A DNA stretch of 37,856 nt from Clostridia bacterium (lineage in GTDB: Bacteria; Bacillota; Clostridia; Lutisporales; Lutisporaceae). The first letter of the stretch is position 1. The number at the start of each line of letters is the position of its first letter. A program made the position numbers and the translations under genes. The stretch is from positions 1-37,856 of the forward strand of contig JAQSYD010000034.1 of NCBI GenBank assembly GCA_029256325.1, given 5' to 3'. Of the stretch, positions 15,652 to 21,397 are shown one piece after another. Under the pieces are notes generated by a model that was not told the DNA's origin, did no database searches, and saw nothing but the letters and a program-made list of their open reading frames with translations.

Positions 15652-16515
15652 ATGCTAGACCCAAGGATTTACGATGTAAAAGATGAAATATCCTGGTGTC
15701 CCGGCTGCGGAAACTATAATATACTCCCATCCTTGAAGCAAGCTTTGGCAGAATTGGAATTACAACCTCATCAAGTCGTTATTGTATCCGGCATAGGGCA
15801 AGCTGCCAAGACACCACATTACATGAACGCAAATGGCTTCAACGGTTTGCATGGCAGAGCAGTGCCGCCGGCACAGGGAATGAAAATTGCGAATAAGAAT
15901 TTAAAGGTCATCATACACTCAGGGGATGGGGACTCCTATGGTGAAGGCGGCAATCATTTGCTGCATGGAATCAGGAGAAATGTAGATATCACACATATTG
16001 TACACAATAACCAGATATATGGATTGACCAAGGGGCAAGCTTCACCGACAACTGCCTTAGGGCAGAAAACTACCATGCAGTTTGATGGCAATACCTCCGA
16101 CCCTATCAGTCCTTTAGCCCTTGCTGTTTCAATCGGCTGTGGATTTGTAGCCAGAGCCTTTTCCGGAGACAAGGAGCATCTTGTAGAAATAATGAAGGAA
16201 GCTATAAATTACAAGGGCTATGCCTTAATCGATGTACTACAGCCCTGTATAGCCTTTAACAAAGTAAATACCTTCAAGTGGTACAAGGACAGGGTATATA
16301 AAATTGATGATACAAGCTATGATAATTCAGATAGAGTAGCTGCCTTTCAAAAGGCTTTGGAGTGGGGAGACAATGGAATTCCCTTAGGAGTATTGTATAG
16401 ACAGGAAAAGAGTACATATTTTGATAGAGTAAGCTATTTGGAGGAAGGTCCGGCTCTTGTGGACAGAATATGGCAGCCAAAAGACGCAGAGCGATTTATG
16501 GAGGATTTCAGATAG
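15652..16515 (+). CDS. 2-oxoacid:acceptor oxidoreductase, beta (TPP) subunit
   Basis: 287 residues. The thiamine diphosphate fold is shown by G-D-G-D-S-Y-G-E-G-G-N near residues 88-98 and the downstream H-N-N-Q-I-Y-G-L-T-K-G-Q-A-S-P-T motif, which is a hallmark of 2-oxoacid:ferredoxin oxidoreductase beta subunits. The N-terminal W-C-P-G-C-G region gives two cysteines of the proximal 4Fe-4S cluster, and further Cys residues lie downstream. It acts in the cytoplasm with the preceding subunit. The ATG abuts the alpha stop codon, with an AGGAGG site inside the end of the alpha gene, so the two are co-translated. No delta ferredoxin subunit is present, as in the two-gene forms of the enzyme. Two structured repeats follow the gene. 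Confidence 0.9.
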   Translation: MLDPRIYDVKDEISWCPGCGNYNILPSLKQALAELELQPHQVVIVSGIGQAAKTPHYMNANGFNGLHGRAVPPAQGMKIANKNLKVIIHSGDGDSYGEGGNHLLHGIRRNVDITHIVHNNQIYGLTKGQASPTTALGQKTTMQFDGNTSDPISPLALAVSIGCGFVARAFSGDKEHLVEIMKEAINYKGYALIDVLQPCIAFNKVNTFKWYKDRVYKIDDTSYDNSDRVAAFQKALEWGDNGIPLGVLYRQEKSTYFDRVSYLEEGPALVDRIWQPKDAERFMEDFR

Positions 16516-16568: not shown

Positions 16569-16685
16569 AAAGCCAAACACTTTGCCTAAGGAATAACTTG
16601 CTGAAGTAAGGCTTCTCCCGCAAAGCAAGGCTTCTGATGCTGTTGAAGCCGATGGAAGCAAATTTGTTCCTTAGAAAGCAAAGAA
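16569..16685 (+). repeat. Structured intergenic repeat, copy 1 (117 bp)
   Basis: The ends pair as a long interrupted stem: CTTTGC (16580-16585) with GCAAAG (16678-16683), and TAAGGAA (16587-16593) with TTCCTTA (16667-16673). Inside are CTTGCT/AGCAAG with a GAAG/CTTC cap, and GCTTC (16630-16634)/GAAGC hairpins. The strand is arbitrary. Confidence 0.8.
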
Positions 16686-16705
16686 AATGTTTCTATTTGA
16701 ATGTT

Positions 16706-16878
16706 AAAGCCAAACACTTTGCCTAAGGAATAATTTGATGGAGTAAGGCTTCAGAGACCCAAGAGGAATGCCTCTGAAGGAGCTTGCTTTGTCAGACCTC
16801 GGAGCTGCATCCCGCAAAGTAAGGCTTCTGATGCTGTTGAAGCCGATGGAAGCAAATTTGTTCCTTAGAAAGCAAAGA
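16706..16878 (+). repeat. Structured intergenic repeat, copy 2 (173 bp)
   Basis: It has the same outer stem as copy 1: CTTTGC (16717-16722)/GCAAAG (16872-16877) and TAAGGAA (16724-16730)/TTCCTTA (16861-16867). The right half is almost identical to copy 1. About 58 extra bases are inserted; these form their own stem (CTTCAGAG with CTCTGAAG) and a longer helix, CTTGCTTTG with CAAAGTAAG. Confidence 0.8.
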
Positions 16879-16913: not shown

Positions 16914-17831
16914 ATGGAGAATAAAAAGGAATTCAAAAAAGTAGGAACTCATGACGGTAGATTTCATCTAAAGGAATTGGATATTGTCTACGATGTTGGG
17001 GATGGAGAGTTTGATCATCATCAAGTGGATAAAGAATTCAGAGAAAGCGGCACACCCTATGCAGCCAGCGGCTTGATATGGAGAAAGTACGGCAGGGATG
17101 TTGTGCGCATCAATGCCCCGGATTTTTCAGATGATGAAATATACAATGTGTTCAGATACATAGACAGAAATCTTATAGAGGCTATTGATGCTTCAGATAA
17201 TGGTATCAGAGCTGCCATGTCAATTATCCCGACACCGAATATTTCTTCAATAATATCTAATTTTAATCCGCCATGGGATGCTGATACCGAGAATGAGGAT
17301 GAGTATTTTCATCAAGCGGTTAAATTAGCAGACATTGTTTTAGGAAATGCCTTGGCACAGCAAATATCTACCGTGAAAGCGAAGGCGCATATCGCAGCAG
17401 CTTTTGAAAGGCGTCCTAGACCGGAACTGCTGGTGCTGGAAAGATCCTACCCTTGGGCTAGAGTTTTAAACAGTATAGACAGAGAGCGGCAGGTACAATT
17501 TGTAGCTTTTCCCAGAGAAGAGGAATACCTATTGCAAACAGTAAGAGGCAGCGGAGGTTCGCTAGGGAACAGAAAAAGCCTACCGGAGGCTTGGGCTGGC
17601 AAAAGAGATGAAGAGCTTAATGAGATCATCGGAATTGATGACGGGATATTTTGTCATTCAGGCAGGTTTATCGCAGGCGCTAAATCTTATGAAAGCATAT
17701 TAAAGATGGCAGATATCGCAATTGAAACCCCAGAAAATAAGCCGCCTAAGAGATTTGGGCATGTACTGCGAAGATTTATTACAAAACAGCTTAAATCTAT
17801 CGGGCTGATAGAGGATCAAGGAAGAAAATAA
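16914..17831 (+). CDS. MYG1/UPF0160-family protein with a shortened metal-site region
   Basis: 305 residues. The start V-G-T-H-D-G-R-F-H and then Y-D-V-G-D-G-E-F-D-H-H-Q, with A-S-G-L-I-W-R-K-Y-G, are MYG1-family marks. This DHH-like fold is linked to RNA exonuclease or phosphodiesterase activity in eukaryotes; the bacterial role is unclear. In other members the first motif reads F-H-x-D-E/D followed by about 25-30 residues before the V-x-D-V-G strand. Here FH runs straight into LKELDIVYDVG, so that segment and its acidic metal ligands seem to be missing. The reading frame is intact. It lies after the structured repeats and 77 bases upstream of hutG. The AGAAGGTG site precedes the ATG. Activity may be lost or altered (inference). 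Confidence 0.75.
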   Translation: MENKKEFKKVGTHDGRFHLKELDIVYDVGDGEFDHHQVDKEFRESGTPYAASGLIWRKYGRDVVRINAPDFSDDEIYNVFRYIDRNLIEAIDASDNGIRAAMSIIPTPNISSIISNFNPPWDADTENEDEYFHQAVKLADIVLGNALAQQISTVKAKAHIAAAFERRPRPELLVLERSYPWARVLNSIDRERQVQFVAFPREEEYLLQTVRGSGGSLGNRKSLPEAWAGKRDEELNEIIGIDDGIFCHSGRFIAGAKSYESILKMADIAIETPENKPPKRFGHVLRRFITKQLKSIGLIEDQGRK

Positions 17832-21205: not shown

Positions 21206-21397
21206 TTTAACTCTCCTTGAATAAATAGTTCTTGCTTAATTAGTTTATCATTGAAGCAGCCTATTTACACTATTTTTTTGCGCATATGAAAATGTGCTAT
21301 AATAATTCTATAATTTACATATTAATTGGTAAACTAATAATATTTACAGTATAATACTTACATAGTAATACTTACAAAGGATAAAGAGGAGATAAAC

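What the first reader, a model, noticed from the sequence alone, without database searches (positions are those of the whole stretch)
16569..16878. Tandem pair of multi-stem intergenic elements of unknown class
Two copies (117 and 173 bp) share conserved ends that pair as CTTTGC/GCAAAG plus TAAGGAA/TTCCTTA and a near-identical right half with a GCTTC/GAAGC hairpin. Copy 2 gained about 58 bases that fold on their own (CTTCAGAG/CTCTGAAG and CTTGCTTTG/CAAAGTAAG, where a G-U pair keeps a helix that copy 1 forms as CTTGCT/AGCAAG). Keeping the pairing while changing the sequence suggests selection on structure. It may be a mobile palindromic repeat, a structured RNA, or a transcript-processing element. 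It lies before a MYG1-like gene.
Basis: partly seen in the sequence, partly recalled or inferred. Interest (0 to 1): 0.65.

Follow-up and report, generated by a model that had tools for sequence, protein, structure and literature searches.

The report
Dispersed mobile repeat with folded core
Two side-by-side copies of a short DNA element belong to a family scattered between genes in a patchy set of Clostridia; every full copy carries a 165-base core whose folded shape has been preserved while its letters changed, so it is a mobile repeat built around a folded, RNA-like core that is absent from the Rfam library.

Summary
Window 16569-16685 and 16706-16878 are two tandem members of a dispersed family: 28 sense-strand places in this genome and 61 in the five genomes of the genus. 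Polarity is reversed: the 165-nt long form is ancestral, and copy 1 lost the P3 arm. The core folds as a long closing stem P1, a stem P2 and a branched hairpin P3. The fold is conserved across several Clostridia families with almost complete turnover of stem sequence: 28 of 35 pairs carry two-sided changes, and 93% of cells pair against 77% in shuffles and 38-53% in slid controls. Within the genus, 49 G-U against 4 A-C cells mark the written strand as the folded one. Rfam has no match.

The element moves: species-specific copies, clean empty orthologous sites, two copies sharing one internal insertion, and one subfamily with 13-bp terminal inverted repeats and 8-bp target duplications. No autonomous partner was found; four of five genus genomes show no reverse transcriptase match. 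Best reading: a non-autonomous MITE-like element carrying a selected structured core, probably acting as read-through RNA (sense bias 16:5). What the core does is unproven. Closest analogues: CREE/NEMIS and bcr repeats. New variant of a known kind.

The parts
16569..16685 (+). Copy 1: short form of the element (core 16577-16683), P3 arm deleted
   Evidence: direct repeats; CM match 95 bits; HMM 1-42 + 98-163
16706..16878 (+). Copy 2: full-length element (core 16714-16877)
   Evidence: CM match 175.5 bits, positions 1-164 of 164
16717..16739 (+). Copy 2, 5' strand of closing stem P1 (CTTTGC..TAAGGAATAA..TTTGAT)
   Evidence: RNAalifold and covariation
16850..16877 (+). Copy 2, 3' strand of closing stem P1 (AAGCAAATTTGTTCCTTAG..GCAAAG)
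16748..16752 (+). Copy 2, P2 5' strand GCTTC
16839..16843 (+). Copy 2, P2 3' strand GAAGC
16756..16775 (+). Copy 2, conserved junction segment GACCCAAGAGGAATGCCTCT (family consensus CCCNNRAGGAAUACCUCU), kept across families
   Evidence: alignments
16776..16791 (+). Copy 2, P3 5' strand GAAG + CTTGCTTTG
16815..16828 (+). Copy 2, P3 3' strand CAAAGTAAG + CTTC
16686..16705 (+). A/T-rich linker between the tandem copies (right arm of copy 1 fused to left arm of copy 2); near-identical linkers occur in the C45 array
21206..21397 (.). Unoccupied orthologous site: G001 (and G003) carry a copy of the element between these same two genes; this genome does not

Best explanation
The two elements are members of a non-autonomous, MITE-like mobile repeat family whose essential content is a structured core of about 165 nt. 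SHOWN: dispersed multi-copy family; lineage-specific amplification; presence/absence at orthologous sites; a core fold P1/P2/P3 conserved by compensatory change in several families of Clostridia; the written strand is the folded one; one subfamily has terminal inverted repeats and 8-bp target duplications. INFERRED: (1) a trans-acting transposase, encoded elsewhere or on an uncaptured element, moves the copies (a DDE enzyme for subfamily B; unknown for the main subfamily); (2) the core acts as an RNA made by read-through from neighbouring genes, and because mainly copies with an intact fold have given rise to new copies, the fold is needed for the element's own propagation or for tolerated insertion (RNA processing or protection, as for CREE/NEMIS); (3) short forms such as copy 1 are deletion derivatives that lost P3.
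For: Copies: 28 distinct sense places in this genome, 61 in five genus genomes. Structure: 28 of 35 pairs with two-sided changes, 93.1% of cells paired against 77.2% shuffled and 38-53% slid, 0 of 500 shuffles as high on any of the five measures; the same direction within the genus alone, 98.7% paired. Strand: 49 G-U against 4 A-C cells. Mobility: the L098 site has a 25-bp spacer in G002 against ~240 bp in this genome; further sites lack the element in G002; copies cluster by species, 6 label changes against 24 in shuffles; L111 and L112 share one 54-bp internal insertion at different loci. Subfamily B: TIR GGCTATGTTAAAG/CTTTAACATAGCC and 8-bp direct repeats matching 8/8 and 7/8 (8/8 also in a TIR relative with another interior) against at most 6/8 in mismatched pairings. 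Read-through: sense to antisense 16:5 in codirectional spacers, p=0.027.
Against: No transposase with matching ends was found (drafts break at repeats). The main subfamily shows no general TIR or TSD. Orthologous sites occupied in two species would also fit vertical inheritance plus gene conversion for part of the family. No transcript was seen; the sense bias is modest. G-T wobble in single-stranded DNA would give a similar strand signal.
Confidence: 0.6

Rival explanations
1. The fold is needed as single-stranded DNA, not as RNA: a strand-specific transposase or recombinase recognises the folded top strand during replication, as HUH-Y1 enzymes or integron integrases do.
For: Strand-specific fold; no general TSD in the main subfamily; Y1_Tnp proteins occur above cut-off in four of five genus genomes.
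Against: The only Y1 gene of this genome is flanked by a different hairpin (GGTGCCAGGCACC), not by this element. Conserved loop sequences kept across families while stems turned over are more typical of RNA. Subfamily B has TIR and TSD like a DDE element.
Confidence: 0.2
2. A functional regulatory RNA (cis element or sRNA) of the host, dispersed by old duplications and kept at orthologous sites, not a mobile element.
For: Orthologous occupancy in several pairs (L096/L135, L099/L136, window/L139); multi-helix fold with conserved loops.
Against: Unrelated neighbouring genes, clean empty sites, opposite orientation at the same site (L093 vs L124/L150; L117 vs L125; L235 vs L247), species-wise clustering, tandem arrays, truncated copies, patchy taxonomic distribution.
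Confidence: 0.1
3. RNA-mediated retroposition (SINE-like): the structured RNA is reverse-transcribed into new sites.
For: 3'-end-only copies outnumber 5'-only copies (about 14-18 against about 4, part of them being internal deletions).
Against: No RVT_1 match in G000, G001, G003 or G004, although G000 has the most copies; no consistent TSD in the main subfamily; TIR in subfamily B.
Confidence: 0.05
4. Chance or artefact: two ordinary hairpins with accidental similarity.
For: Pairing within A/T-rich spacers is common.
Against: Covariation beyond all shuffles and slides, dozens of copies, full-length matches in other families.
Confidence: 0.01

Closest known systems
Correia repeat enclosed element (CREE/NEMIS) of Neisseria
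   Same: Small intergenic non-autonomous element, long (~153-157 bp) and internally deleted (~105 bp) forms, ends that pair in the transcript, presence/absence polymorphism (PMC2649163).
   Different: CREE folds mainly as one stem from its terminal repeats and occurs in Neisseria; here the core is a branched P1/P2/P3 fold with conserved loops, retained across several Clostridia families. RNase III cleavage not tested here. No sequence relation tested.
bcr1-bcr3 (MITE-like) and bcr10/bcr18 (structured) repeats of the Bacillus cereus group
   Same: Interspersed 100-400 bp repeats, some MITE-like, others with conserved RNA structure, often co-transcribed with genes (PMC3446304, PMC6542083).
   Different: There the mobile and the conserved-structure properties are reported mostly for different families and are confined to the B. 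cereus group; here one family combines both. TTTAT motif not found as a general boundary here.
IS1595/IS1016-type insertion sequences (as possible source of the subfamily B ends)
   Same: GG-starting inverted repeats and A/T-rich 8-bp direct repeats (IR GGGGCTGTACTAGA, PMC12561309) against GGCTATGTTAAAG and 8-bp A/T-rich repeats here.
   Different: Resemblance only; no transposase found. IS1595 search not run.
REP/REPIN elements with RAYT (Y1) transposases
   Same: Dispersed intergenic folded repeats moved in trans.
   Different: REPs are 20-40 bp (PMC3733652); the RAYT-like gene of this genome is flanked by another hairpin.

Membership tests
MITE (miniature inverted-repeat transposable element) | Short, non-coding, multi-copy, mostly intergenic | tested here: met
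   ~165-266 bp, nearly all copies outside long ORFs (the few overlaps are with 81-88 aa frames that look spurious)
MITE (miniature inverted-repeat transposable element) | Terminal inverted repeats | tested here: inconclusive
   Met in subfamily B (13 bp). In the main subfamily no outer TIR beyond chance, though the core ends pair (P1) and old copies L101, L113, L126 extend it to TAGCACTAAAT/ATTTAGTGCTA.
MITE (miniature inverted-repeat transposable element) | Target-site duplication | tested here: inconclusive
   8-bp in L265 and L107 and the TIR relative L271; not general
MITE (miniature inverted-repeat transposable element) | Autonomous relative with the same ends (customary, not strictly required) | tested here: inconclusive
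   No TIR pair around a transposase gene in the draft; the assembly breaks at repeats, so absence is weak.
Structured RNA family (Rfam-like) | Conserved secondary structure supported by covariation | tested here: met
Structured RNA family (Rfam-like) | Match to a described family | tested here: not met
   no credible match in Rfam 15
Structured RNA family (Rfam-like) | Transcribed | not testable with these tools
   no RNA-seq available
REP/RAYT | Repeat flanks the RAYT gene | tested here: not met
Retroelement (SINE-like) | Reverse transcriptase available in trans | tested here: not met
   no RVT_1 match in four of five genus genomes; drafts are 69-92% complete
CREE/NEMIS | RNase III processing of the paired ends | not testable with these tools
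   needs experiment

The most novel reading that the evidence does not exclude
The core is the RNA component of its own mobility: a trans-acting RNA-dependent transposition or recombination system (in the manner of bridge RNA or omega RNA, but with the RNA carried by a protein-less dispersed element) recognises the P1/P2/P3 fold, which is why the fold and the loops are kept in every active lineage while stems and outer arms turn over.
Probability: 0.1. Interest if true: 0.85.

Novelty: new variant of a known kind. Interest (0 to 1): 0.52.

Why it matters
Small bacterial mobile repeats are usually described as simple palindromes confined to one genus or group. This family combines clear mobility with a branched, RNA-like core whose structure survives almost complete replacement of stem sequence across families of Clostridia. 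That makes a concrete question testable: why a protein-less mobile element keeps a complex fold, whether as an RNA-processing signal that makes insertions tolerable, as a substrate for the enzyme that moves it, or as a regulatory RNA that spreads by itself. The covariance models and alignments define the family, which is missing from Rfam.

Tried and rejected
Rfam search of window copies, other genus copies and remote copies: no credible match. Plasmid and phage collections and viral contigs: none. Reverse transcriptase as mover: no match in four of five genomes. Y1/RAYT as mover: its gene has other flanking hairpins. General TSD or outer TIR for the main subfamily: not above mismatched controls. 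Iterative nhmmer mixed strands because the element is nearly palindromic; strand-fixed models were used afterwards. A pseudoknot between the GGAG of the P1 internal loop and the CUCC of the P3 loop looked attractive in some copies but fails in many, and CUCUG/CAGAG likewise (read by eye); neither is claimed. An alternative conformer that swaps the P2 and P3 strands is 92% paired but weaker than P2/P3 (97.9%) and broken in several G001 copies; noted, not claimed.

Full report
What is there. The window carries two tandem elements, 16569-16685 and 16706-16878, between a 2-oxoacid:ferredoxin oxidoreductase beta-like gene (15652-16515) and a MYG1-like gene (16914-17831) (gene names from reading the translations). 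Searching the window's own genome (G000, a 198-contig draft of 3.57 Mb) with the 310-bp stretch gave 32 places. A covariance model (R1, from 30 aligned full-length copies) gave 28 distinct sense-strand places in this genome and 61 in the five genus genomes held (my count from the table). Named members of the genus include Clostridiales bacterium GWB2_37_7 and MAGs under JARBUB01, JAQSYB01 and JAQSXJ01.

Polarity. Most copies are the long form, 160-165 nt; short forms are a minority. Copy 1 therefore lost the P3 region; copy 2 did not gain it. Short forms that lack P3 arose several times: window copy 1, L110, L126 and L154 in the genus; L250 and L260 in family f49; L261 in G271.

Structure. Within the genus the alignment folds as P1, P2 and P3: 98.7% of cells paired and 8 pairs with two-sided change, both above all 500 shuffles. 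Searching the class with R1 found full-length matches outside the genus, and R2, built with them, found 3-5 copies each in three genomes and 2 in a fourth genome of one other family (f49). On the combined alignment (A4, 37 sequences) 28 of 35 pairs have two-sided changes, 93.1% of cells pair (shuffled 77.2%, slid 38-53%), and the covariation score is 0.481 against 0.219 shuffled. P1, for example, is TAAGGAATAA/TTCCTTA in the genus and GGAGGATGG/CCATCCTCC in f49. Loops are kept: CCCNNRAGGAAUACCUCU in the junction, CAGAG in the P3 loop, GAUG after P3. A4 and A5 were fitted to the models, which leans towards the structure; but A1 was aligned without structure and gives the same answer, and the remote members fold alike on their own. 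G-U cells outnumber A-C cells 49 to 4 in A1, spread over 14 pairs against 3 (one pair accounts for 24 of the 49), so the strand as written is the folded one.

Distribution. With R3, 12 of 391 class genomes have a match at E<=0.001, most with several copies: the genus, two other genera of its family (G008 with a tandem pair, G018 with three near-identical copies), f49, G174, G271 and G398. The weakest (33-46 bits) are less certain singly, but the G008 and G018 copies are repeated within their genomes. A phylum sample of 398 gave only the window's own genome; these wide searches used stricter filters. No match in Rfam, plasmids, phages or viral contigs.

Mobility. (a) Empty sites: the L098 site has a 25-bp spacer in G002 where this genome has ~240 bp including the element; the sites of L109, L133, L147, L155 and L110/L146 lack the core in G002; window 21206-21397 lacks the element found there in G001 and G003. 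At the finding's own locus G002 lacks the core but keeps a palindrome CTAACTATGTA..TACATAGTTAG, so that site may be a remnant rather than never occupied. (b) Species-wise clustering of copies: 6 label changes against 24 shuffled, even though several sites are occupied in two or three species. (c) The same site can hold the element in opposite orientation: L093 against L124/L150, L117 against L125, L235 against L247. (d) L111 and L112 share one 54-bp internal insertion at unrelated loci, so a copy was made after the insertion. (e) Subfamily B of this genome is a 266-bp unit with TIR GGCTATGTTAAAG/CTTTAACATAGCC and 8-bp direct repeats (8/8 in L265, 7/8 in L107, and 8/8 in L271, a TIR relative with another interior; mismatched pairings at most 6/8; L112 3/8, L111 6/8). 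The main subfamily has no general TIR or TSD, so its mover is unknown.

How it probably works. Copies with enough context lie outside credible genes. In codirectional spacers the element reads with the genes in 16 of 21 independent sites (p=0.027), which fits read-through transcription and selection against, or rare insertion in, the other orientation. Because mainly copies with an intact fold have given rise to new copies in each species, the fold is probably needed for propagation or for tolerance of the insertion. I judge RNA more likely than single-stranded DNA because loop sequences are kept across families while stems are replaced; this is inference. CREE/NEMIS, whose ends are bound and can be cut by RNase III in transcripts (PMC2649163), and the bcr repeats, about half of which are co-transcribed (PMC3446304), are working analogues, not relatives shown by sequence.

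What would make it more. If the core were the RNA partner of an enzyme acting in trans, this would be an RNA-dependent mobility system carried by a protein-less element. Nothing here excludes it, but nothing specific supports it either; I give it about 0.1.

Limits. All genus genomes are drafts (69-92% complete) that break at repeats, so copy numbers are lower bounds and an autonomous partner could be missed. No expression data. The reverse transcriptase and Y1 searches exclude only what the drafts contain.

Noticed in passing
L150, L151, L153, L154 (G003), e.g. L150 either side of 179-341: A second dispersed repeat, AAGATTCTTCACTGCGTTCAGAATGACA, flanks copies of the element on both sides in G003, as if the two repeats form a composite unit.
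   Followed up: partly
L224 (G000:C99), around the ~300-aa Y1/RAYT-like ORF: The only Y1_Tnp gene found in this genome is flanked on both sides by GGTGCCAGGCACC hairpins, which look like its own REP elements; a similar hairpin occurs next to a truncated copy in L121.
   Followed up: partly
L271 (G000:C158), L267 (C66), L270 (C145): MITE-like units with the subfamily B inverted repeat GGCTATGTTAAAGT but other or decayed interiors (L271 has perfect 8-bp direct repeats), so one set of ends carries several interiors.
   Followed up: partly
L110:2027-2155 against L146:1698-1901: Cobalamin riboswitch beside the element: 129 nt and 74 bits in this genome against 204 nt and 104 bits in G001, apparently lacking an internal segment in this genome.
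   Followed up: partly
all genus loci: Partial copies keeping only the 3' part outnumber those keeping only the 5' part; some are internal deletions, but a bias may remain unexplained.
   Followed up: partly
A4 columns 39-43, 105-108, 161-164, 176-180: The four strands of P2 and outer P3 are alike in pairs, so they could also pair the other way (92% of cells), as in a migrating four-way junction; weaker than the main fold.
   Followed up: yes
L244, L247, L249 (G302): Right arms of the f49 element in this genome are followed by a shared hairpin GCCGGGCGGTCAAAGACCGCCC, and left arms are preceded by GAAGTTAGAAGTTGG repeats.
   Followed up: no
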